From positions 30,314,668 through 30,378,667 of the forward strand of contig NC_133110.1 in the NCBI RefSeq assembly GCF_022965805.1: a stretch of DNA of 64,000 bases. The letters run 5' to 3'. Under the pieces are notes generated by a model, which saw nothing but the letters and a program-made list of their open reading frames with translations, was not told the DNA's origin and did no database searches. This document shows, piece by piece, positions 24,649-46,788 of this stretch. The DNA is from Primulina eburnea. Lineage: Eukaryota > Streptophyta > Magnoliopsida > Lamiales > Gesneriaceae. The translations under genes and the position numbers were made by a program. Every line of letters begins with the position of its first letter. Position 1 is the first letter of the stretch.

Positions 24649-25954
24649 GAGATGTTTACTTGCATTTAAACAATGATTTTAAGTTTGTTTTGAGAGATGT
24701 TTTGTTTGTACCAGATTTGGTGAAAAACATTATTTCCATTTCTATGTTGGACAAAGATGGATTTTCTTGTTTATTTAGCAAAGGTGTTTGCAACAATTAC
24801 AATACCGAATGTTTAATTGGTACCGGAGAACTTGAAAACGATCTCTACACCTTAAAATTGAAAGATATTCCACTTAACAATGTCCAAGCTGTAACAACAA
24901 CAAACAAGCGCAAACAAGATACTCTAAATTTGGCACAATTATGGCATGCTCGATTAGGACATATTTCCCTAAGAAGGATGAACAAGCTAGTGGGAGTGGG
25001 CATGTTTAATATGTCTGATATTAATGCTCTCACGACTTGTGAATCCTGTCTAAAAGGAAAGATGACCAAAATTCCCTTTAAGGGCCATGTGGAGCGAGCC
25101 AAAGGGTTATTGGATTTGATCCATACCGATGTGTGCGGTCCGCTTAGCATCACCACTAAGCATTGACATGCCTACTTCATCACCTTTACCGATGACTTTT
25201 CGAGGTATGGGTATGTGTATTTGATGAAATACAAGTCTGAAGCCTTTGAAAGGTTCAAAGAATTCAGAAGTGAAGTAGAGAAGCAATTGGGACGAAGCAT
25301 CAAGAAACTTCGATCGGATCGAGGTGGTGAGTACTTGAGTGCCGAGTTCCAAGAGTATCTTAGGGAGAATGGGATTCTCTCGCAGTGGACTCCGCCAGCT
25401 ACACCACAGTTGAATGGTGTTTCGGAGTGTCGTAACCGGACTTTGATGGACATGGTTTGGTCTATGATGGGGTTCACGGAGTTGCCGCCATCCTTTTGGG
25501 GATATGCGCTTGAGGCAACGGCACTGTTGTTGAACAATGTCCATTCAAAGGCAGTTGACAAGACTCCATATGAGATATGGATGGGTAAGCCACCCAAATA
25601 TTGTTATCTTAGAATATGGGGGTGCCCTGCTTATGTGAAGCAGGTAGTGGGAGATAAATTGGATAGTCGATCTATTTTATGTTACTTTGTGGGATATCCA
25701 AAGAATTCTGTTGGATATTACTTCTATCATCCCCAAGAAACAAAGGTGTTTGTTTCTAGGAATGCAACATTTTTGGAAATGGAATTTCTATTGGATAGAA
25801 AAGCGAGATGATAGAACTCGAAGAGGTTCGAGAGACACCCACAATTATAGAACCCACACCCGAAGAGCCAAGAGAGGAGATACGAGCTCCTAGAAGATCC
25901 GAGAGAGTCTCGAGACCACCTATGAGGTATGGTCTGCTTCTTGAAGAGGACCAT
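24649..25954 (+). pseudogene. pol: CoC pol: GAG-pre-integrase and integrase, interrupted by GyD
   Basis: Open from LNNDFKFVLRDVLFVPDLV. The pre-integrase motif is WHARLGHI...CESCLKGK. The integrase core has HTDVCGPL, then TGA in place of a Gly codon after TTKH (25165-25167; CoH has GGA). It continues YFITFTDDFSRYGYV, RSDRGGEYL and PPATPQLNG with NGVSEC (CoH has NGVLER, the usual catalytic Glu context). A one-base deletion occurs in GATAGAAAAGCGAG (about 25802). It ends at GyD within YGLLLEEDH. Confidence 0.9.
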
Positions 25955-26699: not shown

Positions 26700-28263
26700 T
26701 GTTGCGACTTTGATTGTTGCACTCCCAAGAGCAGGTTGTCCACAAGTAGTATAATTCGGTGAGTCCGAATATCGTATCCACAGGGAAGCAAAGGTAATTA
26801 CAAGTCCACTACAATGTCTTTTTGTTTTTGTTTTTGTTTCTTTTTAATTTTAATTGAATCTTTAATGGGTAAATTTTAATTGTTCAAATTTTAATTTAAG
26901 TAGTTGAGATTAAAGGATCCACTCTTGGCATTTTAATAAAATTAACATTAATGAACAATATTGAAATCCACTTAATAAAATGGTTCCAATATATTAAATA
27001 ATCATATTTATATTATGTTATATATTATTATCTTATAAGTATATATACCAAAACTTATAAATGTGGTCAAGTATTTATTGTGCTATATATATTTGTAAAC
27101 ACTAAATCAAGGTTCCCACTTTAAATGGTTGGTAAAATCAAACTAACATTTAAATGGTACCAAGAAAATATTATTATGATATATTTATATATAGTAAATC
27201 AAGGAATCCAAGTTAAATGGTTGGTAAAACCAAACTAACATTTAAATGGTTCCAAGAATTTAATATTATAATATATTTATATATAATAAATCAAGGCATC
27301 CACTTTAAATGGTTGGTAATACCAAACTAACATTTAAATGGTTCCAAGAATTTAGTGTAACATATAGCAACAATAAATCAAAACTCCCACTTATAAATAG
27401 GGTATAAAAATGCTTAAAGAAATAAATATAACATAAACAATAAATAATGATTAAATAATATAAAACATAACTTCTTACCTTTTAATAACCTTATTATCAT
27501 GCCAAGAGTTTCACCTTATCATCTCAACTTTAGGAAGTTAGCTATTCATTATTCAAAGTGTAAAACTTTGAATATAAAATTAACATGCTAATTGTATTTA
27601 AATGAAGAAATAAAGGAAAAATATAGAGAGAAATATTATGAACTCAAAGGTTTGTTCATAGAATGAGGGATATCCCAATACATTACAATACACCCCTATT
27701 TATAGCCAAATTTGGGGAGACAACTACAAATAAAATATTATTTTTTACACAAAAGTCTTCATTGGTGTTCCAAGAAATTAATATTATATTACGCATCACT
27801 TTTGAAGGTCTTCTTCTTCGAATTTGCTTCTTCACATAAAATGAAACATGTGGATAATTGAGTTGTCTAGTTGTGGTATTTTTTTCAGAATATTTGACCA
27901 AGTAATTTGAGAGATATGGTCAAAATACTAGAGCATGGTAAAACTGCCACTCCTTTGGTAACTTTAATTGTTGCTTAATTTGATCCCAATTGTGAAAGGA
28001 TTTTATCTCATGCTTGCCATCAATATTGTAGATATTAACATCAACTTTCTACAGGTCCAAGAATCATCTTAATCCCATTTGCAATGCCAAGTTTATTCTT
28101 CTTTTATCGAACCTGTAAAAATAGTAAAAACTTATAATTTCACAACAACTTATATTTTATACAATTTATTATAAAACATATAATATTTAAACATTTAATA
28201 AAACAAAAACTATATATTTATATTATAAAACATTTAATTAATGTACAATTTTTATGTTTATCA
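26700..28263 (-). repeat. AthE 3' LTR (left copy)
   Basis: In sense it runs from TGATAAACATAAAAATTG (28263) to CAAAGTCGCAACA (26700). Three tandem units of about 92 bp lie at 27103-27373. A TATA box (sense TATAAATAGGGGTG) lies at 27697-27704. The open frame at 27683-27901 recurs in the other LTR and shows no domain. Confidence 0.93.
27103..27373 (-). repeat. Three tandem 92-bp units in the AthE LTR
   Basis: Units at 27103-27194, 27195-27286 and 27287-27373 each begin TAAATCAAGG and contain TTTAAATGGTTGGTAA. The same triplet is at about 44551-44821 in the other LTR. They lie downstream of the TATA box in element sense, so in transcribed LTR sequence. Confidence 0.88.
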
Positions 28264-28301
28264 CACCTCCCAACCAGCTTATTGCTAGTCCCTAGCAATT
28301 T
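28264..28301 (-). promoter_or_regulatory. AthE polypurine tract with upstream hairpin
   Basis: In sense, GGTTGGGAGGTG ends directly at the LTR TGATAAAC. Before it is the hairpin ATTGCT-AGGGACT-AGCAAT (28281-28299). The same arrangement recurs at 29370-29409. Confidence 0.78.
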
Positions 28302-29511
28302 GAGCGTTAATAGCAATACAAAACATATTGATTAATTTAAATAGAAATGTAATCAAAACTATCTAAGTGTTTAAATTAAATTTGAAAACTGTCAAAGTTA
28401 TATCAAGATCATCATAATTATAATTTATGAAATAATTTGAGATTATTAATTCAAAGCTTATTTCAGGTAGTTAAGTGTACACGGCCTTCAGAAATTCCTA
28501 GTAAGAGTCTCAACTCCATATCCTCACAGGTTAATAAATGTTTCTATTTATGGCAACGATTTCTCTCATGGAGTTGGAATACAGATGAATGCTCAGGAAA
28601 ATGGTTTACAGAATGCAGACAGACAAACGAGCCAAACTAATCAAAAGATAGAAAATCCATTGAGTTAAAATCCATTTGTTCTTATTATATATATTTTTTT
28701 TTTTTTACATCATGGAATCAGACTAAGTTTATGCTTTTTGACCACATATTTATTTAATTTGTACAATGTATTTCTCTCTTTCTTTTTTTTTCTTTTTTTT
28801 TTTTTATTCTTATGAGAGAAAAATGGGTCGCAGCATATAACTTAAAAATTACATAGATCTTCAACATCTTTCTTTTTGTATTTTTCTCTTTTTTTTTTCT
28901 TTTTTTTTTTCAGGAAATATCATTTTTTTTTTCAAAATAAGAACTCAAGATCTAAACAATAGATAGTCTCTCTCATGATCAATAAAGGCTCGAAAGCTGT
29001 TTTCTCAGTCCTCTCCACTCACTCACAAAATATGTGTGAGTTTAAAATTTTAGGCACTCTTATAAGGTATATCTTGGGCCATATACTTTAATACCTGATT
29101 TTATCACAATGGTTAATCACTCAAAAAGATTTCATAAATCATATTTTTATATTGATCAGAATATTAAAATTTACATTTTTTTTTCAAATAAAAATTTAAA
29201 CATTCTTAAATAGATTAATGCATATTCTAATTTAAATCTTTCAAACATGTAATGTATAACATTTTTGCAAAAATTACTAAGATACAAACAATAAACATGA
29301 TTTTATTTTAAAATAATATATTTTTTTTAATTTTTTAATTTTTTTTAAATGTTTTTTTATATAAGTTTGTTCTCCCCCCAATCAGAATATGACATTGTCC
29401 CTAATGTCAAAATAACTAGTAATAAAGAGTGCATAATGAAAGAGATATCACCTGGAATTTTATTGAAGATAACAAACTGAAACAAATGCAAACCAATCCA
29501 CGACTTTTGAA
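28302..29511 (-). other. AthE 3' non-coding region
   Basis: This is the stretch between the LOG stop and the polypurine tract. On the plus strand it has long T tracts (28690-28930, 29320-29350), so in element sense it is A/purine-rich. A second hairpin plus G-run (29370-29409) is present. No coding ORF is recognised. Confidence 0.75.
29370..29409 (-). promoter_or_regulatory. Second hairpin plus G-rich tract (internal PPT-like)
   Basis: In sense: TGACATT-AGGGAC-AATGTCA (29409-29390), seven bases, then ATTGGGGGGAGAA (29382-29370). It mirrors the hairpin plus polypurine tract next to the LTR and could prime a second plus strand or be a relic of an older 3' end. Confidence 0.6.
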
Positions 29512-30150
29512 TCAATGATCCAACTTCCTTTTCTTACTGCTTGATTGCGACCAATTGATCTTTGTTATCATCGGATCTGGCTTATGAACAAAATCTTCCA
29601 AATCATCAATTAATTGATCGGCAGTCGAAGCACAGATGAGCATCCGTCGTGAATTTTCTGAAATGAAATTCTGTTCCACAGCTTTATCAAGAAATGTCAA
29701 CAAACTGTCATAATAATTATTGATATTCAACAAGCCCACAGGTTTATTATGGATATTAAGTTGTACCCAAGAAACAGTGTGAAAAATTTCTTCTAATGTA
29801 CCAAAACCACCTGGTAGTGCGATAAAAGCATCAGAATTTTCAATCATTTGAGTGATTCTTTCATACATAGAAGAAACTTTTAATTCCTCCCCAATCGTAA
29901 CACCTGTAATATTTCCTTCAGCTAAAGCTATAGGAATAATACCCAAAACCTGACTACCTCCAAGATGAGCAGATGTTGAAACAGATCCCATTAACCCAAT
30001 ATTACCTCCCCCATATACCAAGTGAATTTTTCTCTCAGCCAATATCTTTCCAAGATTATTCGCTGCTTCTACAAACACTTCATTTTTTCCAGGACTCGAC
30101 CCACAAAATACACAAATATTTTTCAATGTTTGTGCAGAGGATCCAGCCAT
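29512..30150 (-). CDS. LOG-family cytokinin riboside 5'-monophosphate phosphoribohydrolase, captured in AthE
   Basis: This is a complete 212-codon ORF, ATG at 30150. LOG enzymes release active cytokinin base from its ribotide in one step. Visible motifs are CGSSPG (16-21), YGGGNIGLMG (46-55), MYERITQM (95-102, containing the conserved Arg98) and the hallmark PGGFGTLEE (113-121). Length is typical of plant LOGs (about 200-240). The C-terminus has a basic KKRKL. The Rossmann-like lysine decarboxylase-type fold is expected. Many LOGs have MHxRKA; here it is MYERIT, recalling a divergent LOG-like subgroup. The ORF has no intron, whereas plant LOG genes usually have several, so capture through RNA is likely. 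It lies in AthE, same strand, between integrase and 3' LTR, with a splice-acceptor-like site 22 bases upstream. Activity is inferred. Confidence 0.9.
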   Translation of the reverse strand: MAGSSAQTLKNICVFCGSSPGKNEVFVEAANNLGKILAERKIHLVYGGGNIGLMGSVSTSAHLGGSQVLGIIPIALAEGNITGVTIGEELKVSSMYERITQMIENSDAFIALPGGFGTLEEIFHTVSWVQLNIHNKPVGLLNINNYYDSLLTFLDKAVEQNFISENSRRMLICASTADQLIDDLEDFVHKPDPMITKINWSQSSSKKRKLDH

Positions 30151-30171
30151 GTTTTTACTTTCTTTTTTTTT

Positions 30172-30200
30172 CTGCGAAAATAGAGAGAAAGATGAGAGAT
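30172..30200 (-). promoter_or_regulatory. Candidate 3' splice acceptor before the LOG ORF
   Basis: In sense, TCTCTCATCTTTCTCTCTAT then TTTCGCAG (AG at 30173-30172), a pyrimidine-rich tract ending in CAG, 22 bases before the LOG ATG. Splicing from an upstream donor would make LOG the first ORF of a subgenomic RNA. The donor is not identified. Confidence 0.5.
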
Positions 30201-30359
30201 TTTATAGGGGTAATATGTTATCATGACAAAACTATGGGTCACAGCTGTAAACAGAATAAATAGTAAAAACAATAATGACACACATGCATATAAACAGTAG
30301 TGTGATTGTGGCTCACAATTTTCCTCTGGTTTTACGTCCAGAAACGGCTTCAACGCCTT

Positions 30360-30443
30360 CTATGAGTCGAGGATAGGCTTCCCATCCAATTTTCTTATAA
30401 ATTGGCAAACAGGGTCTTTTTTAGTCAGATTCCCAAGACTATG
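30360..30443 (-). pseudogene. 3' end of the split Cys-rich ORF of AthE
   Basis: After GyF and its CTATG duplication are discounted, the reading frame of 38549-38083 continues here for 27 further codons (including LGNLTKKDP and FIRKLDGKP) to TAG at 30362-30360. The intact ORF would have been about 180 codons. Confidence 0.7.
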
Positions 30444-31572
30444 TGTAGTGACCCGTTCCAGAATCACCTACTAGTTGAGAACTAAGCATGCAATTAACTT
30501 AATTAATAAAAATCAGAGATAACAGCGGAAATATGGTTAACAACAATAGTTTATACAACCCAATCGAAATCCAAAATACTCAACTAACTGAAAGTATCTG
30601 CTACAATCATATCAAATCAAATGGAAAACACTGAAAACTAAACCAACCAGCTACTCAATGTCCTCCTCCTGCTCCTCCTGAGCCATCCAACCTGAGGCCT
30701 GCCCCGTGGAAATGGGGTGTCCAAGATAAACAAAACCGAGGACGTGAGCGATAAGAACGCCCAGTACAAAAGCATGAGTATACAAACCTATATGAAATGC
30801 ACATGCTATGATATGATACCAGGGTAGTCAAGAAACAGGAGTCACAAAAGATCTCAAAATGCTCAGTCTAGAGGCGCCAAGTGGATAGTGCCGCGCGGTA
30901 CTACCTCTGGGTCACTGCATCCACTGCAAGAACAGACGTGGACCTAAAATGTCCCGGATCACCGAAGCCCTCCCGACCCGTCGGCCACTGTGTACTCTCG
31001 GTGTCCATGCGTCCACAAGACAAGACAGGGCTGAGAGGCCCCACAAGATATATAGCTTATCTCGAAAGAGATACAGCTCAACAGTAAAGGCTATCTCGAA
31101 GGAGATACGGCTCAACATGAAATGCAACATGCATCATAAATCGTGACATAATAGCATGCATCATATGACATATAACAATGCACCACATAATCATGCAACA
31201 CATATAAGAATGTATACTCGACCAGGATATCTCGGATAGTACTTTCGTACCTCTATCACAGCAATCCTAATCCACTGGAATAACCAGACAACAGGTCTAG
31301 TCCAAGCCTATTCATCAAGTGAAAACCATCACTAAAACTTATCTACCAGACTTAACTAGATAATCCTGAGATAATACTGATACAATTCCAAACCTTCGTC
31401 CGTCGCTAGCCCACTGATGCCGCTAGCTCCCAACTAGAGCACAGCTCCGCTACAAGACCAGCAGCTCCCCGCTAGTGCCCGAACCTCGGAAAAAGACTAG
31501 AATCTCACAGAAACGACTGAAATGCTATGGAACTCTCTGAATTGGCGAGTCACAAATGAAGCCTCGCGCCTC

Positions 31573-31580
31573 TATTTATA
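31573..31580 (-). promoter_or_regulatory. TATA box of the GyF LTR
   Basis: Sense GGCTATAAATAGAGGCG is a strong plant TATA context. It lies just downstream of the palindrome array. The other LTR has the same box at 37729-37736, which would drive the element RNA. Confidence 0.8.
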
Positions 31581-31586
31581 GCCAAT

Positions 31587-31870
31587 GTTCGGATGATCCG
31601 AACCATTTCGGAAGCTCCGATCCGGCACACTTCGGACGGTCCGAACTCTGATCGGACGATCCGATCCTTGCATGACTTCCACGAGTACAGCCACCTGTCT
31701 CGGACGATCCGAACCCCAATCGGATGATCCGAACCTTACCACGTGTCCAGAACCCTTCCACGTGTCCAGCCACCTGTCTCGGACGGTCCGACACCTGGCT
31801 CGGACGATCCGAACTCATCGGACGATCCGAACTCATCGGACGATCCGAACTTGTTCGGTCCTTCCGATCC
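31587..31870 (-). repeat. CGGACGATCCGAAC palindrome array (GyF left LTR)
   Basis: About ten copies of TTCGGACGATCCGAAC or near forms (TCGGA and TCCGA half-sites around CGA, TGA or CGG) lie directly upstream of the TATA box in element sense. The copy at 37743-38026 is almost identical. Confidence 0.9.
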
Positions 31871-31926
31871 CACCGAAAATATAATTAATCCGATAATTAA
31901 CTCAAATTAGGAATCGGGTTACTACA

Positions 31927-31940
31927 TTCTCCCCCCCTTA
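31927..31940 (-). promoter_or_regulatory. GyF polypurine tract
   Basis: In sense, TTAAGGGGGGGAGAA ends at the LTR TGTAGTAACC. Between it and the gag-pol stop (32089) are about 150 non-coding bases. Confidence 0.85.
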
Positions 31941-32088
31941 AAAGATTTCGTCCTCGAAATCAAGTTTATAGGATGAACAAAACTGAAATAACAACATTGT
32001 TATTACATCTCAATTGTTGCCAAACACAACTGATAATTGGATTACAACGGAAAACATACATACATCCATAGTACAACTACAGTACAAC

Positions 32089-35000
32089 TCAAAAGAGCTC
32101 TGGATGCTCCGAACGCATACGACTCTCTAGCTCCAAAGTGGCTTCTTCAGTGCCTCTACGCTGCCACTGAACTAAGACAAGAGGAATGATCTTATTCCGC
32201 AACACCTTATCTTTGCGATCGAGAATCTGAACTGGTCGCTCCACGTAAGACAAATCCGATTCAAGTTGAACTTCAGATGGATGTAAAATGTGTGATTCAT
32301 CTGCCACATATCGTCGCAAAAGGGATACGTGAAACACGTCATGAATCACAGACAGATACGGAGGTAATGCTAACCTGTAAGCCAAATCTCCCACACATTC
32401 CAGAATCTCAAAAGGACCAATAAATCTCGGAGATAGCTTACCCTTGAGACCAAATCTCAAAATCCTGCGAAAAGGCGAAACTCGGAGAAACACTTTCTCA
32501 CCTGGCTGAAAATAAAGAGGTCGCCGCTTGGTGTTCGCATAACTAGCCTGTCGATCCTGGGCAATCTTAATCCGCTTCTTGATTACTGCAACTTTATCAA
32601 TAGCCTGCTGGACTAACTCCGGTCCCTCAACATGTCGTTCCCCAACTTCATCCCAGAATAATGGAGTACGACAACGTCGCCCATACAACGCCTCAAATGG
32701 TGCCATACCAATACTACGATGGTAGCTGTTGTTGTACGCGAACTCAATCAAAGGCAAATGATCCTGCCAAGCGGGTCCGAAATCCATAACACAGGCTCGC
32801 AACATATCCTCAAGCGTACAGATAGTCCTCTCTGACTGACCGTCAGTCTCCGGATGATAAGCAGTACTCAGACTCAGTGAAGTGCCCAATGCTGACTGGA
32901 AACTACCCCAAAATCGTGAGGTAAAACGAGGATCCCTGTCACTAACAATACTGACTGGAACTCCATGCAAACGTACAATTTCTTGAATGTACAAGCGAGC
33001 CATCCGATCGAAAGTGAAGTCACGGTTATAAGGCAGAAAATGAGCAGACTTGGTGAGTCGATCCACCACTACCCAAATAGCATCACTATTCCTCGAAGAC
33101 AATGGCAAGTGAGTAATGAAATCCATCGTGATATGCTCCCACTTCCATTCAGGAATAGGTAGATTCAACAATAATCCTCCAGGTCGACGGTGCTCTGCCT
33201 TAACCTGCTGACAAACAAGACACTTGGAAACAAACTGATAAACACTGCGCTTCATCCCTTTCCACCAAAATCGTGTCCTCAAGTCTTTATACATCTTATT
33301 GCTTCCTGGATGGACACTCAACTTGCTTCGATGAGCCTGAGACAAGATCTCTTCCCTCAAATTATCATCCTCTGGTACTACAACCCGATTAGACAAACAT
33401 AGAAGACCATTAGACTGATAATGGAAACCGCTATCTCCACCCGCTAACCGAGCTAATCTCTGAGTCTTCAGATCAGACATCTGAGCATCTCGAATCCGAG
33501 CGAACAAAGCTGGCTCAGATAAAATGGTAGCAACACGAATGCTCTCCATACCTTTCCGATGTTTGAAGTTAAATCCCAACGAACAACAATCCTGAATAGT
33601 ACTAATCATAGCACTGGTCTGAAGTGCAGAGGCTCTCACCTTACGACTAAGAGCATCGGCTGTGAGATTCGCAGAGCCTGGATGGTACTTGATCTCGCAG
33701 TCATAATCTTTCAGTAGATCCATCCAACGACGTTGTCTCATGTTCAACTCAGCCTGAGTGAACAGATACTTCAGACTCTTGTGATCAGTAAAGATTTCAA
33801 ACTTAACCCCGTACAAGTAATGACGCCAGATCTTCAGTGCGAACACTATAGCTGCCAACTCTAGATCATGAATAGGGTACTTCTCCTCGTGAGATTTCAG
33901 CTGCCTGGAAGCGTAAGCGATCACATGACCATTCTTTGTCAACACACACCCTAAGCCTTGAAAAGATGCATCGGTGTAAACACTGAAACCATCAGATCCT
34001 GACGGTAACGCCAAAACAGGTGCAGAAGTCAGAAGTCGACGAAGCTCTCTGAAACTATCTTCGCACTCAGATGACCACTCAAATGGAACATCCTTCCGAG
34101 TAAGTTGCGTCAAAGGTCTAGCTACCTGGGAGAAATTCACGATGAAGCGACGATAATACCCTGCCAGACCTAGAAAACTACGGATCTCGGCCACCGTCGT
34201 AGGACGTGACCAATTCAGCACTGCTTCAATCTTGCTGGGATCCACAGAAATTCCTTCCTTGGAAATCACATGACCAAGGAATACTACACGATCAATCCAG
34301 AACTCGCACTTACTCAGCTTAGCATACAATTGCTTCTCGCGAAGAATCTGCAACACAATCCTCAAGTGCTGGACATGCTCCTCCACACTGTGAGAATAAA
34401 TCAAGATATCGTCGATGAAAACCACAACGAACTGATCTAGAAAATCACGAAAGACTAGGTTCATCAGATCCATGAACACCGCTGGCGAATTCGTCAATCC
34501 GAATGGCATAACTAGAAACTCGTAATGCCCGTAACGAGTACGAAATGCAGTCTTGGAAATATCATCATCTCTGACTCTCATCTGATGATAACCCGATCGC
34601 AAGTCAATCTTGGAGTAAACAGAGGTACCCTGAAGCTGATCGAACAAGTCATCGATACGAGGTAATGGATACTTGTTTTTGATCGTCACACGATTCAGCT
34701 GGCGATAATCAATGCACAATCGCATAGATCCATCTTTCTTCTTGACAAACAAGACTGGGGCTCCCCAAGGTGAAACACTCGGGCGAATATAACCTTTATC
34801 AAGAAGATCCTGCAATTGCTGCTTCAATTCTCTCATCTCTGACGGAGCAAGACGATAGGGGGCACGAGAAATCGGTGCAGTCCCTGGCATTAACTCAATG
34901 CCAAATTCCACCTCTCTAACCGGAGGAAAACCAAGAATCTCATCTGGAAAAACATCAGGAAATTCACAAACCACTGGAATATCATCTATACCAACACTAC

Positions 35001-36507
35001 CTGTGGAGGAATCAATCGCATAGATGAGGTAGCCTTCCCCGCCCGCCTCTAAAGCACGACAGGCTTTCAGAGCAGATACCACTGGCATCGGAGGTCGCGC
35101 TCCCTCACCATAGAAAAACCAACTAGAGCTCTCAGTCGTACGGAACTGAACAAGCTTCTGGTAACAATCCACAGTAGCTCGGTAGGTAGTCAAAATGTCT
35201 ATACCCAAAATACAATCAAAGTCTTCCATCTCCAGAATCATAAGATTCGCAGTCAACTCGTTACCCTCAAAATCTAAAGGACAACCCATCACTAGACGCT
35301 TGGCTAAAACCGAATGACCCATCGGGGTAGAAACAGAAAGAATAACGTCTAGAGAAACATACGGTAACTTATGACGCTTAACAAATCGTGCAGAAATGAA
35401 TGAATGAGATGCTCCGGTATCTATAAGAACAAAAGCAGGAATACCGCATAAACAAAAAGTACCTGCTATGACTCTCCCGGTCTCATCTGCAGCCTGATCC
35501 TGGTTCAGCGCAAACACCTGACCTTGGGCACGAGATCGAAGATTCGAACTACCCACTGCCTGACCCTGCCTCCTCTGCTGAACAGTCGTCTGAGATCCAG
35601 AACCGGATCCTGCTCCACCTCGCAACTGAGGACAATTCTTCTTAATATGCCCCATCTCTCCGCACTGATAACAAGCTCCTGCGGCTGCTCGGCATTGCTC
35701 CGATGGATGGTTCTTCCCACAATGCGCAAAAGATTCCTTCTTCTTACCAAAACGGAAAACACCGCTAGATCGAGATCCAGATCCAGAAGAAGACGAACCA
35801 GATTTCTTGAACGACTGAGATCGAGGCCTCAAAGTACTCGGAGGTCTAGAAGAAAGAATAGCCCTACCACGCTGGAGACTGATCTCTGCCTGGCGACACC
35901 GGTTCACTAACCCATCATAAGAAGTAGGATTATCACAGACAGTGACTCGGTCAAAGATCTCCTGGTTAAGACCCTGGAGGAAATGGTCATACTTGGCCTC
36001 AGAACTGCCACTGATATGAGGAGCGAAGGGTAACAACTCGAAGAATTTCTGCTGATACTCATCAACAGACATACTCCCCTGCTTAAGGTTCAGGAGCTCA
36101 ATCGTCTTCGCCTGGCGAAGGGCTGGAGGAAAATACAGCTGCATGAAAGCTGCACAGAAATCGGCCCAAGTCACCCTACCCTGGGACTGGACTATCGGCG
36201 CAGAAGTCGATCGCCACCACTTGCGCGCACGGCCCTCGAGAAGAAAGCTAAGGGTCTCTATCTTCTGCTCCTCGGTGCACTGAAATGCACGGAAACAACT
36301 CTCCATGCGCTCTAACCAGTCCTCAGCATCATCGGGAGTCTCTCCACCGACTAGAGGCTTAGGCCCCATCTGAATAAAACGATGCAACTCAAAACGCCTA
36401 GGACCATCCCGACGATGACGATGCTCACGATGACGCCTATGATCATCCTGGTCGCCCCAACGACCTACACTCCCCTGACTACTCTCGTCATCAAAGTGGT
36501 CAGCCAT
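32089..36507 (-). CDS. gag-pol: GyF gag-pol polyprotein (intact, 1472 residues)
   Basis: The frame is open from 36645, but the likely start is the ATG at 36507 ([10 protein letters not shown]), after the primer site and LTR; the upstream codons lie in the LTR and leader. Domains: gag about 40-240 ([16 protein letters not shown]), zinc knuckle C279-C282-H287-C292, protease D363-T-G, RT about 530-790 with FIDD at 697-700, RNase H (D846, E883, D908), integrase zinc residues H1059/H1066/C1096/C1099, catalytic D1129, D1190, E1226 (exact D35E spacing) and a chromodomain-like end at 1425-1472. In that end EEATLELE stands where relatives have ATWE, an aromatic-cage-type Trp changed to Leu. Product: one polyprotein cut by its own protease. 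Probably Tekay/Del-like chromovirus. Confidence 0.95.
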
Positions 36508-36583
36508 CGCTACAAGATAGAATGGGGTAAAATGGTCAACGAAAATCCCAAAACAGAAATCTATATCCCAAAATCGTAAGCAT

Positions 36584-36595
36584 GCTCTGATACCA
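36584..36595 (-). promoter_or_regulatory. GyF primer-binding site (initiator Met tRNA)
   Basis: In sense TGGTATCAGAGC, a full match to the Met primer, 4 bases from the LTR end (TACA then TTTA). The ATG of gag lies 77 bases further on. Confidence 0.9.
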
Positions 36596-36599
36596 TAAA

Positions 36600-38082
36600 T
36601 GTAGTGACCCGTTCCAGAATCACCTACTAGTTGAGAACTAAGCATGCAATTAACTTAATTAATAAAAATCAGAGATAACAGCGGAAATATGGTTAACAAC
36701 AATAGTTTATACAACCCAATCGAAATCCAAAATACTCAACTAACTGAAAGTATCTGCTACAATCATATCAAATCAAATGGAAAACACTGAAAACTAAACC
36801 AACCAGCTACTCAATGTCCTCCTCCTGCTCCTCCTGAGCCATCCAACCTGAGGCCTGCCCCGTGGAAATGGGGTGTCCAAGATAAACAAAACCGAGGACG
36901 TGAGCGATAAGAACGCCCAGTACAAAAGCATGAGTATACAAACCTATATGAAATGCACATGCTATGATATGATACCAGGGTAGTCAAGAAACAGGAGTCA
37001 CAAAAGATCTCAAAATGCTCAGTCTAGAGGCGCCAAGTGGATAGTGCCGCGCGGTACTACCTCTGGGTCACTGCATCCACTGCAAGAACAGACGTGGACC
37101 TAAAATGTCCCGGATCACCGAAGCCCTCCCGACCCGTCGGCCACTGTGTACTCTCGGTGTCCATGCGTCCACAAGACAAGACAGGGCTGAGAGGCCCCAC
37201 AAGATATATAGCTTATCTCGAAAGAGATACAGCTCAACAGTAAAGGCTATCTCGAAGGAGATACGGCTCAACATGAAATGCAACATGCATCATAAATCGT
37301 GACATAATAGCATGCATCATATGACATATAACAATGCACCACATAATCATGCAACACATATAAGAATGTATACTCGACCAGGATATCTCGGATAGTACTT
37401 TCGTACCTCTATCACAGCAATCCTAATCCACTGGAATAACCAGACAACAGGTCTAGTCCAAGCCTATTCATCAAGTGAAAACCATCACTAAAACTTATCT
37501 ACCAGACTTAACTAGATAATCCTGAGATAATACTGATACAATTCCAAACCTTCGTCCGTCGCTAGCCCACTGATGCCGCTAGCTCCCAACTAGAGCACAG
37601 CTCCGCTACAAGACCAGCAGCTCCCCGCTAGTGCCCGAACCTCGGAAAAAGACTAGAATCTCACAGAAACGACTGAAATGCTATGGAACTCTCTGAATTG
37701 GCGAGTCACAAATGAAGCCTCGCACCTCTATTTATAGCCAATGTTCGGACGATCCGAACCATTTCGGAAGCTCCGATCCGGCACACTTCGGACGGTCCGA
37801 ACTCTGATCGGACGATCCGATCCTTGCATGACTTCCACGAGTACAGCCACCTGTCTCGGACGATCCGAACCCCAATCGGATGATCCGAACCTTACCACAT
37901 GTCCAGAACCCTTCCACGTGTCCAGCCACCTGTCTCGGACGGTCCGACACCTGGCTCGGACGATCCGAACTCATCGGACGATCCGAACTCATCGGACGAT
38001 CCGAACTTGTTCGGTCCTTCCGATCCCACCGAAAATATAATTAATCCGATAATTAACTCAAATTAGGAATCGGGTTACTACA
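36600..38082 (-). repeat. GyF 5' LTR (right copy)
   Basis: 1483 bp, the same length as the left copy. Differences seen are at 37748 (C versus T), 37727 (A versus G) and one within ACCACATGTCC near 37899. Palindrome array at 37743-38026; TATA at 37729-37736. Confidence 0.95.
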
Positions 38083-38549
38083 CTATGACGCTTATCTTGA
38101 AATTGTTTCCATAAACGGAGAAGTTCAATATGCACATGTCCACTAGAATGCGTCTCAAGAGTCAATAAGATGTTATCCAAAGACTCCTTACTCAGCCCAT
38201 TCTTAATGAAACCAATTTTATCTTCTCTGTTATCGGAAACACATCCCAAAGATCTGCATCGTTTGTCACAAGTCCATCTTGCACACTTATGACAAACCCC
38301 TAAACTTTTTGCCCTTCGTTTTTTCGCATAAGTGCTTTTTCCTAATCCAAGCAAATACCGAATGAGCAATGACTGTGGAACTTCTCCTCCTAATCGGACC
38401 TTAGCTTCAATTACAAGACGAATATCTTCTGGAATTCCTTTTTGCATTAGCAATCTCAATCTTTCACACCTTCCTGCATAAATTTTTCTTAAAACATTTT
38501 CAGAAACAGAGGGAAAATATTTACAAATTTTTGAGAGAATTTCATCCAT
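38083..38549 (-). pseudogene. Cys-rich basic ORF of AthE, resembling carlavirus-type nucleic-acid-binding protein; split by GyF
   Basis: ATG 38549 (MDEILSKICK), open for 156 codons until GyF; the tail is at 30360-30443. The core is a basic stretch with STYAKKRRAKSLG (72-84) followed by Cys at 86, 89, 94, 98 and 103. This order, an S-x-YA-x-x-RRA-x-x-LG basic motif joined to a Cys cluster, is what I know from the nucleic-acid-binding/Cys-rich proteins of carlaviruses and relatives. These bind nucleic acid and are reported to act as silencing suppressors or regulators. The match rests on motif recall, not a search, and the Cys spacing is shorter than typical. It sits directly after integrase on the same strand and has a splice-acceptor-like site upstream (38683). 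It could also be an unrelated zinc protein. Confidence 0.6.
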
Positions 38550-38682
38550 TTTGAAAAGAAAAGAAATGATTTTTTTTTTATATTTGTATCAGCAATTGTG
38601 GGAAACTGATTTAACCGACTATGAGAGTCACGGAGTACCGTTATCCGCCATTTAACCGGGAAAATAAAAAGATTAAGGAAAC

Positions 38683-38705
38683 CTGAAATAAAAACAAACA
38701 AAATT
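38683..38705 (-). promoter_or_regulatory. Candidate 3' splice acceptor before the Cys-rich ORF
   Basis: In sense, TTTGTTTGTTTTTATTTCAG ends at 38683, just after the pol stop and about 130 bases before the ATG at 38549. It resembles the site before LOG. Confidence 0.45.
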
Positions 38706-38722
38706 AAATGCAACATAAAAAT

Positions 38723-40230
38723 TTAAGGATCAGAAAGGGAAATAAACTCTTCTTGAAAGATTTCATTTTCCAAAAATGGTTTAAGCCTTTGTCCATTCAC
38801 TTTAAAAACATCACCATTTTTAGGATTTTCAATATCCACAGCTCCATAAGGATACACATGCTTTATAACATATGGGCCTGTCCATCTTGATCGTAATTTT
38901 CCTGGGAATATGTGAAGTCGAGAATTATAAAGCAAAACTTTTTTACCAATCTCAAAAGATTTTCTAAGAATTGTTTTATCATGAAATGATTTGATTTTTG
39001 CTTTATAAATCCTTGAATTCTCATACGCATCATTTCTGAGTTCATCAAGTTCATTAAGTTGCAATTTACGCAATTTGTTGGCATCATCCATGCTTGAATT
39101 TAAAGTGTTGATCGCCCAATAAGCTTTATGTTCCAATTCCACAGGCAAATGACAATGTTTTCCATAAACCAACCTATAGGGAGACATATTCAATGATGTT
39201 TTAAAAGCTGTTCGATATGCCCACAGTGCATCATTAAGTCGCAGAGACAATCTTTTCTATTTGAGTTAACAGTTTTTTCCAAAATTTGCTTTATCTCCCT
39301 ATTAGCTAATTCAACTTGTCCATTTGTTTGAGGATGATAAGGAGTTGTTACTTTGTGAGTAATACCATATTTTTTCATTAATGAAGCAAATGGTTTATTA
39401 ATAAAGTGAGTTCCCCCATCACTTATCATAGCTCGAGGAATTCCGAATCTACTAAAAATATTTTCTTTCAAAAATTTGATGACGATTTTATGATCATTTG
39501 TTCGACATGGAATTGCCTCTATCCATTTGGAAACATAATCAACTGCAACTAAAATATACAAGTATCCAAACGACGGTGGAAAAGGTCCCATAAAATCAAT
39601 TCCCCAACAGTCAAAGATTTCAATTTCAATGATAGGATTCAAAGGCATCATGTTTCTTTTTGAAATTGCACCCAATTTTTGACAATTTTCACAGATCTTG
39701 CAGATTTCGTGGGTGTCTTTAAACAAAGTGGGCCAATAAAATCCACACTGCAAAATTTTTGCAGCCGTTTTCTTTGAAGAAAAATGTCCTCCGCATGCTT
39801 CTGAATGACAAAATTTAATGACACTACTTACCTCATTGTCGGGTATGCAACGTCGAAAAATTTGATCTGGACAGTACGGATCATCCCAATAAAAGTTTTT
39901 TACCTCATTCAAAAATTTTCTCTTATCTTGGGAACTCCATTGCGGTGGCATTTTTCCTGTCACAAGAAAATTTACTATATTAGCAAACCAAGGTGTAGTA
40001 GTAACTGAAAATAGATGTTCATCAGGAAAATTATCATTAATTGGTGTCATTTCACAAGATGATCCTGTTACTAGTCTCGATAAATGATCGGCTACGACAT
40101 TCTCGGTTCCTTTTTTATCTTTGATCACAATGTCAAATTCTTGGAGCAACAAAATCCATCGTATCAGTCGTGGCTTTGCATCCTGTTTCGTCAACAAATA
40201 TCTAATAGCAGAATGAACAGTAACACACAA
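38723..40230 (-). pseudogene. pol: AthE RNase H end and integrase, one frameshift
   Basis: Reading from about 40230: [21 protein letters not shown] (RNase H), [11 protein letters not shown], integrase zinc region ([30 protein letters not shown]), core ([38 protein letters not shown]). A one-base deletion at about 39245 shifts frame at NRKDC/LRLND. The other frame goes on [22 protein letters not shown] to the stop at 38723, with the C-terminal [20 protein letters not shown] motif of Athila/Tat integrases. No chromodomain is seen. Confidence 0.9.
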
Positions 40231-41797
40231 AAGTTGTTGATCCAATCAAATAAGAACGAAATTTATCTAATGCAAATATTACAGCAAGTAGTTCTTTTTC
40301 AGTTGTGGAGTAATTCATTTGAGCATTGTTTAAAGTTCTACTTGCATAATATACCACATAAGGCTTACCGTTTCTTCTTTGACCCAGTACTGCACCGACT
40401 GCATAATCACTCGCATCGCACATGATTTCAAATGGTAAAGACCAGTCAGGAGGTTGCATGATAGGAGCTGATGTTAAATGTCGAATGATTTTATCAAAAG
40501 CATTTTGACATTCTTGAGTCCACTCAAATGCAGTGTCTTTTGTTAAGAGGTTACAAATGAGTTTAGAGATTAAACTAAAGTCCTTTATAAACCTCATATA
40601 AAATCCAGCATGTCCCAAAAATGATCGAATTTCTTTAATGGTTTTTGGAGAGGGTAAATTGGCAATGATATCAACTTTTGCTTTATCAACTTCAATTCCA
40701 TGAGATGACACGACATGTCCCAAAACAATTCCAGAAGTAATCATGTAATGACATTTTTCCCAATTTAAAATAAGACCTTTTTCCTCGCATCTTTTTAAAA
40801 CTTTTTCCAAATTTTCAAGACAATTATCAAATGTATTCCCAAAGACAGTTAAATCATCCATGAAAATTTCCAAACAATTTTCAACCATGTCGCAAAAAAT
40901 GCTTAGCATACATCTTTGAAATGTTGCTGGGGCATTGCATAATCCAAATGGCATCCTTCTAAATGCAAATGTTCCAAAAGGACATGTGAATGTAGTTTTA
41001 TCTTGATCTTCGAGTGCAATGGGAATTTGATAATAGCCTGAATATCCGTCAAGAAAACAGTAGTAGGGATGACCAGCTACTCTTTCTAAAATTTGATCCA
41101 AAAATGGTAATGGAAAATGATCTTTTCTAGTGGCATCATTTAATTTTCTATAGTCAATACACATCCGCCAACTAGATGGGACTCTACTTGTTAACAATTC
41201 ACCTTTTTCATTTTTTATCACTGTGATGCCAGATTTTTTTGGAACTACTTGTGTTGGACTTACCCACTTACTATCAGAAATAGGGTAGATAATCCCAACA
41301 TCAAGTAGTTTGAGAACTTCAGTTTTCACAACATCTTTCATGTGTGGATTTAATCTCCTTTGTGGTTGTTGAGATGTTTTAGCATTTTCTTCTAAATGAA
41401 TTTTGTGTGTGCAAATTAGTGGATTAATGCCCTTGAGATCTTTCAGTGTCCAACCAATTGCATTTTTATGTCTTTTAAGCATATCAACTAATTTACCTTC
41501 TTGATCACTTTCTAGTTTGGAAGAAATTACCACTGGATATGTTTCATCTTCTCCAAGAAATGCATACTTCAATTCTTCTGGCAAGGGTTTTAACTCCAAT
41601 ATGGGTGGTTCGTCTTTGTTCTCATATTTCGCCTCAAATTCTTTCTCTGATCCTGTTAACGAGTGATACCTGATAAAATCATCAAAATCAATTTCAATAT
41701 TTTCTTTAACAGTTTCAATTGAACAAATATCTAATTGATCACGAGTACTCCCTTCTTGAATGTTTTCTTCCACAAGAGTTTCAATAAGATTTTCATC
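40231..41797 (-). pseudogene. pol: AthE reverse transcriptase and RNase H start
   Basis: In frame with gag and protease but separated from protease by a TAA (41800-41798). RT motifs: RRLNPHMKDVVKTEVLKLLD, WVSPTQVVPKKSG, MCIDYRKLN, FLDGYSGYYQIPI, FGLCNAPATFQRCM and catalytic FMDDLTVF. RNase H starts MCDASDYAVGAVLGQ and STTEKELLAVIFALDKFRSYL. A one-base indel at about 40235 ends the frame in [11 protein letters not shown]. Confidence 0.92.
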
Positions 41798-42679
41798 TTA
41801 ACTTTCATCTCCTTTGTCATGTGGTTGCTTACAAAGATTAAAAACATTGAGCTCCAAGGTCATGTTGCCAAATGACAACTTCATTATTCCATTCCTGCAA
41901 TTTATAAGAGCATTAGAAGTTGCTAAAAATGGACGACCCAAAATTACAGGAATTGCATTACAAGCTTCGATAGGTTGTGTATCTAAAACAATGAAATCGA
42001 CAGGATATACAAAGTTATCAACTTGGACCAACACGTCTTCTACCATACCTCTTGGCACTTTAACAGATCTATCGGCAAGTAAAAGTGTTACCGAAGTAGG
42101 TTTTAACTCGCCTAGATTGAGTTCTTGATAAACTGAATATGGAAGTAAATTCACACTAGCTCCAAGATCAAGCAAGGCTTTTTTAATCTTTCGTTCTCCA
42201 ATAATACATGAAATAGTAGGACAACCAGGGTCTTTGTATTTCAAAGTATTATTATTTTGAATGATTGCACTTACTTGTTCGGCTAAAAATGCTTTCTTTT
42301 TCACATTCAATTTTCTTTTCACAGTGCACAAGTCTTTCAAAAATTTAGCATATGATGGTACCTGTTTTATTGCATCTAATAAAGGAATATTAACTTTTAC
42401 TTGTTTAAAAATATCATATATATCAGAATTCAAATTTGATTTTTTTGTATTTTTCAATGCATGAGGGAATGGTGGTGACACTGTCTGTTGAACCTCCTCT
42501 TCGCAAGTTATGGGTTCCACTTCCTTACCCTTTGAAGTTGATTTATCATCATCTTTACAAGGTTCAAGAATGGATTTTTCCACAACCTTACCACTTCGAA
42601 GGGTAATAACAGATTTTACCTGATCCATCGGTTGAGTTCCAGAAGTTCCAATTTGTGAATGATGATCCTTGGGATTAGG
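41798..42679 (-). pseudogene. pol: AthE protease region
   Basis: In the same frame as gag, after its TAG. It holds VITLRSGKVVE, the Athila-typical protease active site LLDLGASVNLLPYSVY (DLGA in place of DTGA), VPRGMVEDVLVQVD and VILGRPFLATSNALI. It ends at TAA 41800-41798 (after GDES); the frame continues beyond as DENLIETLVEEN, so the stop looks like a mutation. Confidence 0.88.
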
Positions 42680-43951
42680 CTAAGGTTGTGAAGGAAATTT
42701 ACCTTTCTCATTAACATTAAGTGCAGATGCAAATTTAGCAAGAGTAACTTTCAAATCTGTCATGGTTTGAGCAGTTTGAGTATTGATAGACTCTTGCTTT
42801 GCAATGAAAGAATTCAATGTATCTTCCAAATTTCTTTTCGGTGGAGGAACATAAGGTGCATAATTTTGAAAATTTTGTTGATTTTGAAAATGTGGTTGCG
42901 GAAATTGTGCAGCATTATCATTCCTCCAACTAAAATTTGGATGGTTTCGCCAACCTGGATTGTAATTTTGAGAAAATGGTTCAAAATTTGGCCTTTTGAA
43001 ATTGTTCAAAACATTGGCTTTTTCATGGAGACATTCTTTAAAAGAGGGCAAAGTGGGACAATCTTTTGTAAAATGATCACTTGTATCACAGATGTGACAC
43101 GCCATTTCTTGAACAGATTTTAATTGACCATTCTTTTTCAATTCAAGTGCTTCAACTTTTCTTGCCAAAGAAGTAAATCTAGCTTGAAGATCATGTTCAT
43201 CTTTGAGAGTGTACATACCTCCACCAGATGTAGGAGATTGAATCTTGTTTGATGGTTCGATTGTACCTATAGTGTCCCAATTTTGAGCATTTTCAGCTAA
43301 TGAATCAAGATACTCAATTGCCTCGTTTGGATCTTTATCTTCAAATGTTCCATTACACATAAATTCAACCATTTGCCTATCTTTAGGTGTTAAGCCTTCA
43401 TAAAATTGAGAAACAACTCTCCAAATTTCAAAACCATGATGTGGACAAAGATTAAGCAATTCTTTGTATCTATCCCAACATTGATAAAAAGTTTCTCCTT
43501 GTTTTTGAGTGAAAGTGATGATTTGCCTTTTGAAAGAATTTGTTCTATGAGATGGAAAAAACTTTTTCAAAAATTGTTGTTGCAATTCATCCCAAGTTCG
43601 AATGGATCCCGATCTAAGATTTTGTAGCCAAGTTTTAGCTTTATCTTTTAAAGAAAAAGGAAAAAGCTTAAGTCGAATGGTGTTCATGCTACAATTTAGA
43701 TCATTATATGTGTTGCACACTTCTTCAAACTCTCGTAAATGCATGTATGGATTTTCAGAATCTAAGCCATGAAAGTTGGGTAAAAGTTGGATAATACCAG
43801 GCTTAAAATTGAAATGAGATGCATCAGGGGGAAAAACTAGACATGAAGGTGTACGTGTAGGATTCATGTGATCTCTAAGAGTTCTTCGTCTATCATGATC
43901 ATGTTGAGATTGAATTTCATCTTCATTTTCTTGGATGGGTTCTTCCGCCAT
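42680..43951 (-). pseudogene. gag: AthE gag (423 codons to an in-frame TAG)
   Basis: Start chosen at 43951 (MAEEPIQENE); upstream codons are hydrophobic leader noise. The retrotransposon gag core is LLPNFHGLDSENPYMHLREF (57-76), KAKTWLQNLRSGSI and FYEGLTPKDRQMVEFM. Zinc knuckle C285-C288-H293-C298. The TAG at 42682-42680 (SQP, stop, PNPK) is in frame with protease. A CAG codon here in an intact parent would give one gag-pol reading. It may be a mutation or, less likely, a readthrough site. Confidence 0.9.
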
Positions 43952-44123
43952 GTTTTTTAAAAATAAAGGGTTATTTCGAATGAGTCGACCACTAAGTGTA
44001 CGTGACCAAATGCTCATGCAAATGCAAATGCAAAAGAATAAAAACACACAAAAGCAATAAATATTCAAATAAATAAAAATAAACTATAAACAAAATTAAA
44101 TAGACTTGAAATTAAATTATACT

Positions 44124-44141: not shown

Positions 44142-44147
44142 AAAACT

Positions 44148-45711
44148 TGTTGCGACTTTGATTGTTGCACTCCCAAGAGCAGGTTGTCCACAAGTAGTAT
44201 AATTCGGTGAGTCCGAATATCGTATCCACAGGGAAGCAAAGGTAATTACAAGTCCACTACAATGTCTTTTTGTTTTTGTTTTTGTTTCTTTTTAATTTTA
44301 ATTGAATCTTTAATGGGTAAATTTTAATTGTTCAAATTTTAATTTAAGTAGTTGAGATTAAAGGATCCACTCTTGGCATTTTAATAAAATTAACATTAAT
44401 GAACAATATTGAAATCCACTTAATAAAATGGTTCCAATATATTAAATAATCATATTTATATTATGTTATATATTATTATCTTATAAGTATATATACCAAA
44501 ACTTATAAATGTGGTCAAGTATTTATTGTGCTATATATATTTGTAAACACTAAATCAAGGTTCCCACTTTAAATGGTTGGTAAAACCAAACTAACATTTA
44601 AATGGTACCAAGAAAATATTATTATGATATATTTATATATAGTAAATCAAGGAATCCAAGTTAAATGGTTGGTAAAACCAAACTAACATTTAAATGGTTC
44701 CAAGAATTTAATATTATAATATATTTATATATAATAAATCAAGGCATCCACTTTAAATGGTTGGTAATACCAAACTAACATTTAAATGGTTCCAAGAATT
44801 TAGTGTAACATATAGCAACAATAAATCAAAACTCCCACTTATAAATAGGGTATAAAAATGCTTAAAGAAATAAATATAACATAAACAATAAATAATGATT
44901 AAATAATATAAACATAACTTCTTACCTTTTAATAACCTTATTATCATGCCAAGAGTTTCACCTTATCATCTCAACTTTAGGAAGTTAGCTATTCATTATT
45001 CAAAGTGTAAAACTTTGAATATGAAATTAACATGCTAATTGTATTTAAATGAAGAAATAAAGGAAAAATATAGAGAGAAATATTATGAACTCAAAGGTTT
45101 GTTCATAGAATGAGGGATATCCCAATACATTACAATACACCCCTATTTATAGTCAAATTTGGGGAGACAACTACAAATAAAATATTATTTTTTACACAAA
45201 AGTCTTCATTGGTGTTCCAAGAAATTAATATTATATTACACATCACTTTTGAAGGTCTTCTTCTTCGAATTTGCTTCTTCACATAAAATGAAACATGTGG
45301 ATAATTGAGTTGTCTAGTTGTGGTATTTTTTTCAGAATATTTGACCAAGTAATTTGAGAGATATGGTCAAAATACTAGAGCATGGTAAAACTGCCACTCC
45401 TTTGGTAACTTTAATTGTTGCTTAATTTGATCCCAATTGTGAAAGGATTTTTATCTCATGCTTGCCATCAATATTGTAGATATTAACATCAACTTTCTAC
45501 AGGTCCAAGAATCATCTTAATCCCATTTGCAATGCCAAGTTTATTCTTCTTTTATCGAACCTGTAAAAATAGTAAAAACTTATAATTACACAACAACTTA
45601 TATTTTATACAATTTATTATAAAACATATAATATTTAAACATTTAATAAAACAAAAACTATATATTTATATTATAAAACATTTAATTAATGTACAATTTT
45701 TATGTTTATCA
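44148..45711 (-). repeat. AthE 5' LTR (right copy)
   Basis: Same 1564 bp length as the left copy. Differences: C/T near 44585, one missing A near 44920, G/A near 45024, T/C near 45155, A/G near 45240, one extra T near 45450 and A/T near 45590. TATA (sense TATAAATAGGGG) at 45144-45151. Confidence 0.93.
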
Positions 45712-46783: not shown

Positions 46784-46788
46784 ACAGG

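What the first reader, a model, noticed from the sequence alone, without database searches (positions are those of the whole stretch)
29512..30150. A retrotransposon carries a complete cytokinin-activating LOG gene
An intact 212-codon ORF with the LOG hallmark PGGFGTLEE lies inside AthE, on its coding strand, between integrase and the 3' LTR, and without introns. That position is where Athila elements often have an env-like ORF. LOG makes active cytokinin, a cell-division and meristem hormone. A mobile element able to raise cytokinin could favour its own spread into meristem-derived germline. The gene content is seen in the sequence; the benefit is inference.
Basis: partly seen in the sequence, partly recalled or inferred. 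Interest (0 to 1): 0.93.

Follow-up and report, generated by a model that had tools for sequence, protein, structure and literature searches.

The report
Altered hormone-enzyme gene inside a retrotransposon
A jumping element in a plant genome carries an intact gene of the family that activates the hormone cytokinin, but the element-borne versions have changed the part of the enzyme that grips the hormone, so it may well do something else for the element.

Summary
The ORF is real: minus strand 30150-29512, 212 codons, intronless, LOG fold. It belongs to the element. Ten of 10 fetched copies show RT-integrase-NABP-LOG-LTR. Among 74 copies, variants shared by two or more are depleted in amino-acid changes (omega 0.44, P=0.018). 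Element LOGs of several eudicots form one clade (99/99).

Cytokinin activation is doubtful: the catalytic Arg and Glu are usually kept (108 of 112 each), but the pocket Lys is absent in 112 of 112 element LOGs (present in 120 of 120 host LOGs), and so is the pocket Glu. Of 120 relatives, 103 end in LxLxL, an EAR-like motif (host LOGs 0 of 120); the window copy lacks it.

The element also carries a carlavirus-type nucleic-acid-binding ORF. LOG-domain ORFs in Gypsy elements are in print (PMC9289625). I found no print report of the changed pocket, the tail or the NABP partner (searches).

The parts
29512..30150 (-). LOG-family ORF, 212 aa + stop, intronless, accessory gene of the Athila-like element
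29524..29535 (-). codons 206-209, KKRK basic patch at the C-terminus; the LxLxL tail that follows it in most relatives is absent here (ends KLDH)
30172..30174 (-). CAG after a pyrimidine-rich stretch, 21 nt before the LOG ATG: possible 3' splice site (inference); TTTCGCAG within 110 nt upstream in 32 of 34 copies
30200..30206 (-). TATAAAA beginning 56 nt before the LOG ATG: possible internal core promoter (inference); within 110 nt upstream in 33 of 34 copies
38083..38549 (-). 5' part of a carlavirus-type nucleic-acid-binding-protein (NABP) ORF; in this copy cut by the nested Gypsy element (listed ORF 38058-38549 runs into its LTR)
   Evidence: 181-aa ORF in 23 of 31 other copies
38723..39250 (-). 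integrase C-terminal ORF piece
   Evidence: 63% identical over 133 aa to the front of a Rhamnella protein that continues into NABP
39190..40245 (-). integrase ORF (PF00665, PF17921)
40202..41773 (-). reverse transcriptase / RNase H ORF (PF00078, PF17919, PF17917)
41798..42628 (-). protease-region ORF (PF13650)
42680..44068 (-). gag ORF (PF03732)
44148..45711 (-). 5' LTR of the Athila-like element
26700..28263 (-). 3' LTR of the Athila-like element (4 ts + 1 tv + 2 gap columns against the 5' LTR)
30444..38082 (-). younger nested Gypsy element (LTRs 30444-31926 and 36600-38082, 3 differences in 1483; one 1518-aa gag-pol ORF); not part of the LOG system, but it separates LOG from NABP and truncates NABP here

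Best explanation
This is a resident accessory gene of an Athila-like Ty3/Gypsy family, not a host gene caught once. A plant LOG enzyme was captured by such elements, lost its introns, and has been passed on inside them in several eudicot lineages under purifying selection. It sits after integrase and after a second accessory ORF that resembles the carlavirus nucleic-acid-binding protein. Most likely mechanism: the protein still folds as a LOG and still binds a nucleoside 5'-monophosphate with the catalytic Arg/Glu pair in place, but its base/N6-substituent pocket has been rebuilt, so it acts on a different or broader nucleotide, or only binds it, rather than being a standard cytokinin activator; in most lineages a C-terminal basic patch plus LxLxL lets it enter the nucleus and bind TOPLESS-type co-repressors. 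Together with the NABP it would act on the host cell (hormone state, transcription or silencing) for the element. Shown: membership in the element, single clade, intactness, shared-variant selection, pocket changes, tail. Inferred: substrate change, nuclear and TOPLESS role, benefit to the element. In the Primulina family the LxLxL is lost, so there only the enzyme/binding part and the basic patch can apply.
For: Multicopy and same place. Intact: 73 of 74 copies without internal stop (chosen from the LOG-ranked list, so biased to intact). Selection: shared variants 17 N: 15 S, omega 0.44, P = 0.018; singletons 47 N: 20 S, omega 0.92; comparable values for NABP and integrase tail. One clade 99/99, 100 SH-aLRT. 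Fold: pLDDT 86.6, best PDB match 2a33 (plant LOG). Pocket: Lys 0 of 112 and Glu 0 of 112 in element LOGs, against 120 of 120 each in host LOGs; Arg98 and Glu121 each 108 of 112; residue roles from PMC4979012. Tail: LxLxL in the last 15 aa in 103 of 120 relatives and 0 of 120 host LOGs, 34 of 41 at under 90% mutual identity; residues 202-212 predicted disordered. Element link in other plants: Xanthoceras LOG protein with an Athila peptide, 25 of 50 identical; Rhamnella integrase-NABP fusion.
Against: The window copy and 3 near relatives in the list (P0001, P0004, P0012, P0019 make 4 with the basic patch but no LxLxL) lack the LxLxL, so the TOPLESS idea does not apply to this copy. Selection rests on 32 shared variants from copies chosen by LOG similarity, and shared variants at 4 or more copies alone are not significant (4 N: 4 S, P = 0.16). 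The tree warns that the long element branch meets the long bacterial outgroup, so the place of capture among host LOGs is unsure. Host LOGs compared are the 120 nearest to Arabidopsis LOG3 only. The published alanine tests used AMP, not cytokinin nucleotides; a hydrophobic residue in place of Lys could still allow cytokinin substrates. LxLxL is a short motif with no binding test.
Confidence: 0.55

Rival explanations
1. Cytokinin-raising element: the protein is an ordinary LOG that makes active cytokinin in the cells where the element is expressed and so favours meristem or germline spread.
For: LOG fold and PGGxGTxxE motif, catalytic Arg/Glu kept in 108 of 112 each; purifying selection on shared variants; LOG is a hormone enzyme in plants (PMC4979012, PMC8234997 passages).
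Against: Pocket Lys and Glu missing in 112 of 112, and pocket His kept in only 38 of 112, although they are invariant in 120 of 120 host LOGs; alanines at the AMP-binding residues, Lys100 among those named, nearly abolish activity of CgLOG. No expression data.
Confidence: 0.2
2. Catalytically weak decoy: the element LOG no longer makes hormone but forms dimers with host LOG, or holds the nucleotide, and so lowers cytokinin activation.
For: LOGs are dimers with pocket residues supplied across the interface (PMC4979012); fold kept while pocket changed.
Against: Interface residues were not analysed; catalytic Arg/Glu would not need to be kept in 108 of 112 copies if activity were irrelevant.
Confidence: 0.12
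3. Passenger: the ORF has no function for the element and is intact only because the family spread recently.
For: The window copy is young (LTR K2P 0.0032); singletons look neutral (omega 0.92); copies were picked by LOG similarity.
Against: Shared variants omega 0.44, P = 0.018; LOG kept open across families at 58-68% identity in several plant orders and one clade; in the same copies LOG has 0 of 33 with gaps against 28 of 32 for the NABP-LOG spacer and 13 of 13 for the LOG-LTR stretch.
Confidence: 0.08
4. Chance insertion of a host LOG retrogene into one copy.
For: Intronless ORF.
Against: Same ORF at the same place in 10 of 10 fetched copies and 150 of 150 scored matches at 97-100%; only about 50% identity to Primulina's own LOG1-type protein P0315 (49%).
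Confidence: 0.01

Closest known systems
YgdH/LOG-domain ORFs in Ty3/Gypsy elements of Citrus and Populus (PMC9289625, section 12 read, citing Steinbauerova et al. 2011; from recall, that paper's abstract names two Athila-like elements with similarity to LOGL4; the paper itself is not held)
   Same: A LOG-family domain inside a plant Gypsy element, in several consensus sequences of a species.
   Different: Here: an asterid host, position and orientation read in 10 copies, copy-level selection, one clade across plants, changed pocket, EAR-like tail, NABP partner. The passages seen mention none of these.
Plant LOG (LONELY GUY) cytokinin riboside 5'-monophosphate phosphoribohydrolases, e.g. At2g37210 (2a33)
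   Same: Fold (TM 0.77 by query length, 0.93 by target), motif, catalytic Arg/Glu.
   Different: Pocket Lys, Glu and often His replaced; C-terminal tail replaced; intronless; carried by an element.
[quoted passage not shown]
   Same: The neighbouring ORF passes the Pfam cut-off (32 bits against 20.9); 32 of 36 aligned relatives hit Carla_C4 and 31 of 36 Viral_NABP. Carlavirus CRP is described as an RNA silencing suppressor (PMC8742542, passage).
   Different: Found in an LTR retrotransposon; no relative turned up in IMG/VR or the PDB; no function tested.
AlkB (m6A RNA demethylase) ORF in Phalaenopsis Gypsy elements (PMC9289625, passages and section 12)
   Same: Plant Gypsy family with a captured enzyme acting on modified adenine, kept in many copies.
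   Different: Unrelated fold; that one was assayed, this one was not.
Pathogen effectors with EAR motifs that bind TOPLESS (HaRxL21 PMC7446885, Jsi1 PMC8126959; search listing and abstract starts only)
   Same: Short LxLxL in a protein of a genetic parasite.
   Different: Here no binding shown, and the window copy lacks the motif.

Membership tests
LOG family (TIGR00730 / PF03641) | profile match above curated cut-off | tested here: met
   176.9 against 96.35 bits; 129.9 against 27
LOG family (TIGR00730 / PF03641) | PGGxGTxxE motif with catalytic Arg and Glu | tested here: met
   window R98, E121; 108 of 112 element LOGs for each; roles from PMC4979012
LOG family (TIGR00730 / PF03641) | Rossmann-type LOG fold | tested here: met
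   pLDDT 86.6; 2a33, 1ydh, 5zbk, 5its top matches
Cytokinin-activating type I LOG | adenine/prenyl-pocket residues Met, His, Lys, Glu, Trp | tested here: not met
   window M95, Y96, I99, H124, W128: Met and Trp kept; Lys and Glu 0 of 112, His 38 of 112 in element LOGs
Cytokinin-activating type I LOG | NCBIfam equivalog NF058542 | tested here: inconclusive
   123.4 bits against cut-off 300; all 37 aligned proteins, plant LOGs included, match at E <= 0.001, but only the window's bit score was shown, so the cut-off may not suit plants
Cytokinin-activating type I LOG | phosphoribohydrolase activity on cytokinin nucleotides | not testable with these tools
   needs enzyme assay
Athila lineage of Ty3/Gypsy | gag, protease, RT-RNase H, integrase order between LTRs | tested here: met
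Athila lineage of Ty3/Gypsy | no second (aRH) RNase H domain, which marks Tat (PMC6317226 passage) | tested here: inconclusive
   none listed by Pfam at E <= 0.001 for the pol pieces; pol is broken into pieces here and no RT tree was built
Athila lineage of Ty3/Gypsy | primer-binding site | tested here: inconclusive
   sequence next to the 5' LTR begins AGTTTTTGGCGCCGTTGCC; that this is the tRNA-Asp type usual in Athila is recalled
Carlavirus-type NABP | Carla_C4 profile and CxxC-type cysteine cluster with basic stretch | tested here: met
   32 against 20.9 bits; invariant cysteines in A1 and A3
Carlavirus-type NABP | silencing suppression or nucleic acid binding | not testable with these tools
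   needs assay
EAR-motif proteins | LxLxL (consensus in PMC9956375 abstract) | tested here: not met
   window copy ends KKRKLDH; relatives: 103 of 120 met

The most novel reading that the evidence does not exclude
Athila-like elements in eudicots carry a two-gene host-manipulation cassette: a virus-type nucleic-acid-binding protein that blunts silencing, and a repurposed LOG whose rebuilt N6 pocket acts on another adenine nucleotide (for example N6-methyl-AMP from RNA turnover, or a ribosylated AMP immune signal) while its nuclear EAR tail binds TOPLESS. That would make these elements effector-carrying parasites rather than bare gag-pol machines.
Probability: 0.13. Interest if true: 0.92.

Novelty: new variant of a known kind. 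Interest (0 to 1): 0.66.

Why it matters
It would show plant LTR retrotransposons keeping and reshaping a captured hormone enzyme for their own use, next to a virus-type gene, and so makes the old question of what Athila's 3' ORFs do directly testable by biochemistry. It also warns gene-family surveys: close relatives of this ORF are named as host LOG genes in databases (LOG3-like in Primulina eburnea, P0012; LOGL10 in Populus, P0041, P0050, P0088), so host LOG counts may be inflated by element copies (inference; the genomic context of those entries was not seen).

Tried and rejected
Rejected: one-off retrogene. Rejected: virus relatives in IMG/VR of LOG and of NABP gave none. NABP structure: mean pLDDT 58.5, too poor for a fold search, so none was run. 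PDB profile search for NABP: 0 matches. No tRNA in the window. One search was badly posed (two generic terms gave 12,810 papers; none of the 12 listed held the carlavirus phrase) and says little. One search had a strand error for 10 copies; its numbers are void and replaced. One search stopped with an error after printing, so no stop count for the integrase tail. An unbiased sample of copies (by LTR or integrase) and DNA of the second Primulina subfamily (P0012) could not be had because the genome search did not complete; so omega was not measured between families. Rows dropped: 8 of 120 LOG relatives (fusions, fragments and one truncated); 40 of the 112 left used in the trees. The 74 LOG copies are the window plus 73 of the 149 other places listed.

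Full report
Observation. Pfam, NCBIfam, PDB sequence search and a predicted structure all place it in the LOG family. The element around it runs from about 26700 to 45711 on the minus strand, with 1564-bp LTRs that differ by 4 transitions, 1 transversion and 2 gap columns (K2P 0.0032, about 0.12-0.23 My with recalled rates of 1.3e-8 to 7e-9). It carries gag, protease, RT-RNase H and integrase ORFs; pol is broken into pieces in this copy. It sits in a sequence whose uninterrupted copy is at 51661-53474.

Host. The genome's contig C1 has 65,783,404 bases and C2 47,997,621; the same lengths are given as longest contig for two Primulina eburnea proteins, P0012 and P0315. I take the host to be Primulina eburnea (inference).

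Is LOG part of the element? Yes. The own-genome search gave 1465 first-look candidates; the 150 scored all match over residues 1-212 at 97-100% identity and 149 have no stop. In 10 of 10 fetched copies (L009-L018) the order RT, integrase, NABP, LOG, LTR holds on one strand; NABP is partial in L010, and RT or integrase is split in several. LOG begins 208-227 nt after the NABP stop in the 23 copies with a 181-aa NABP frame (of 31 examined).

Selection. Among 74 copies (window plus 73 of the 149 others listed, not a random sample) all begin with ATG and end with a stop and 73 have no internal stop. Singletons are 47 nonsynonymous to 20 synonymous (omega 0.92, P = 0.42), variants in two or more copies 17 to 15 (omega 0.44, P = 0.018), in four or more 4 to 4 (0.39, P = 0.16). 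That is the pattern of neutral decay after insertion on top of constraint during transposition. With smaller samples, NABP (omega 0.25, P = 0.013) and the integrase tail (0.25, P = 0.07) look alike. In the same copies LOG has no gaps in 33 of 33, the NABP-LOG spacer gaps in 28 of 32 and the LOG-LTR stretch in 13 of 13. Because copies were ranked by LOG similarity this comparison favours LOG.

Kin. The 120 best relatives come from named plants (Xanthoceras, Diplodiscus, Reevesia, Populus, Primulina) and unnamed assemblies. Trees of 41 element LOGs with 28 host LOGs and outgroups put all element LOGs in one clade: SH-aLRT 100, 99/99, with hosts and Arabidopsis At5g11950 together at 98/95. The careful tree warns that the element branch and the bacterial outgroup are both long, so the date and donor of the capture stay open. 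That the relatives lie in elements is shown outside Primulina only at two points: a Xanthoceras LOG protein (P0002) contains a stretch 25 of 50 identical to the window's protease-region ORF, and a Rhamnella protein (P0209) runs from an integrase tail (84 of 133 identical) into NABP. High cluster sizes (up to 205 member sequences) fit mobile copies.

What the protein keeps and what it changes. In Corynebacterium glutamicum LOG, Arg99 and Glu122 are the proposed catalytic residues; Met96, Lys100 and Glu121 hold adenine; Met96, His97, Lys100, Glu125 and Trp129 form the proposed prenyl site; alanines at the AMP-binding and catalytic residues gave almost complete loss of activity on AMP, Ser19 excepted (PMC4979012, passages). 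In 112 element LOGs aligned with 120 host LOGs: Arg 108, Glu121 108, Glu120 108, Met95 105, Trp128 110 of 112 kept; Lys 0 of 112 (Leu 43, Met 41, Ile 28), Glu124 0 of 112 (mostly His 63, Gln 45), His96 38 of 112. The hosts are invariant at all of these (120 of 120). The four other PDB relatives printed also have Lys there (read by eye). So the phosphoribose and catalytic side is kept and the base/N6 side is changed, consistently across families. This argues against calling it a complete cytokinin-activating enzyme, though no assay exists.

The tail. The host C-terminus is replaced. LxLxL occurs in the last 15 residues in 103 of 120 relatives and in 0 of 120 host LOGs; two adjacent basic residues in the last 22 in 110 and 6. 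At under 90% mutual identity 34 of 41 keep LxLxL. It looks like KKRKLDLTLRL at the very end. LxLxL is the consensus of the EAR repression motif (PMC9956375, abstract start). The window copy ends KKRKLDH, and P0001, P0004, P0012 and P0019 likewise lack LxLxL; the basic patch stays. In the window model residues 202-212 are below pLDDT 50. TOPLESS binding is inference.

The partner. The ORF after integrase matches Carla_C4 (1.2e-7, 32 against 20.9 bits) and, below cut-off, Viral_NABP; 153 database relatives were found (best 120 listed), and 32 of 36 aligned ones hit Carla_C4 and 31 of 36 Viral_NABP. In the window a nested Gypsy element cuts it. Carlavirus CRP is described as a pathogenicity determinant and RNA silencing suppressor (PMC8742542, passage); whether the element's version does this is unknown.

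Expression. TATAAAA lies within 110 nt before the LOG ATG in 33 of 34 copies and TTTCGCAG in 32 of 34 (31 both), at 56 and 21 nt in the window. Copies are near-identical, so this is weak; shuffles of the window stretch give TATAAAA in 5.7%. An internal promoter or a splice acceptor for a subgenomic RNA are both possible.

What is known. PMC9289625 (section 12 read) reports the YgdH domain, as in LONELY GUY proteins, in Gypsy consensus sequences of two Citrus species and, with a laxer filter, Populus, in line with Steinbauerova et al. 2011. From recall, that paper speaks of two Athila-like elements with similarity to LOGL4; I could not read it. So a LOG ORF in such elements is not new. Searches for LONELY GUY/Athila, carlavirus/Athila, YgdH, LOGL4, extra ORFs and carlavirus/gypsy brought up nothing on the pocket, the tail or NABP; the library holds open-licence papers only.

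Verdict. A real, selected accessory gene of an Athila-like family; new variant of a known kind; cytokinin activation doubtful; the most interesting part is the repeated pocket change together with the tail and the virus-type neighbour.

Noticed in passing
window 38058-38549 (-): Carlavirus-type nucleic-acid-binding ORF inside an Athila-like element, with 153 database relatives; treated above as the partner gene but it deserves a study of its own.
   Followed up: partly
window 30444-38082 (-): Very young nested Gypsy element: LTRs differ at 3 of 1483 positions, 5-bp duplication CTATG, one uninterrupted 1518-aa gag-pol ORF.
   Followed up: partly
window 27087-27446 and 44535-44894: 92-bp direct repeats, three units in register, inside each LTR of the Athila-like element.
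   Followed up: no
P0012, P0041, P0050, P0088: Close relatives of the element LOG are named as host genes in databases (LOG3-like in Primulina eburnea, LOGL10 in Populus).
   Followed up: no
window 12189-14638 / 22334-24802, 7473-9747 / 24104-21834, 45939-50132 / 59811-63995: Further old repeats of other elements, 91-94% identical within the window.
   Followed up: no
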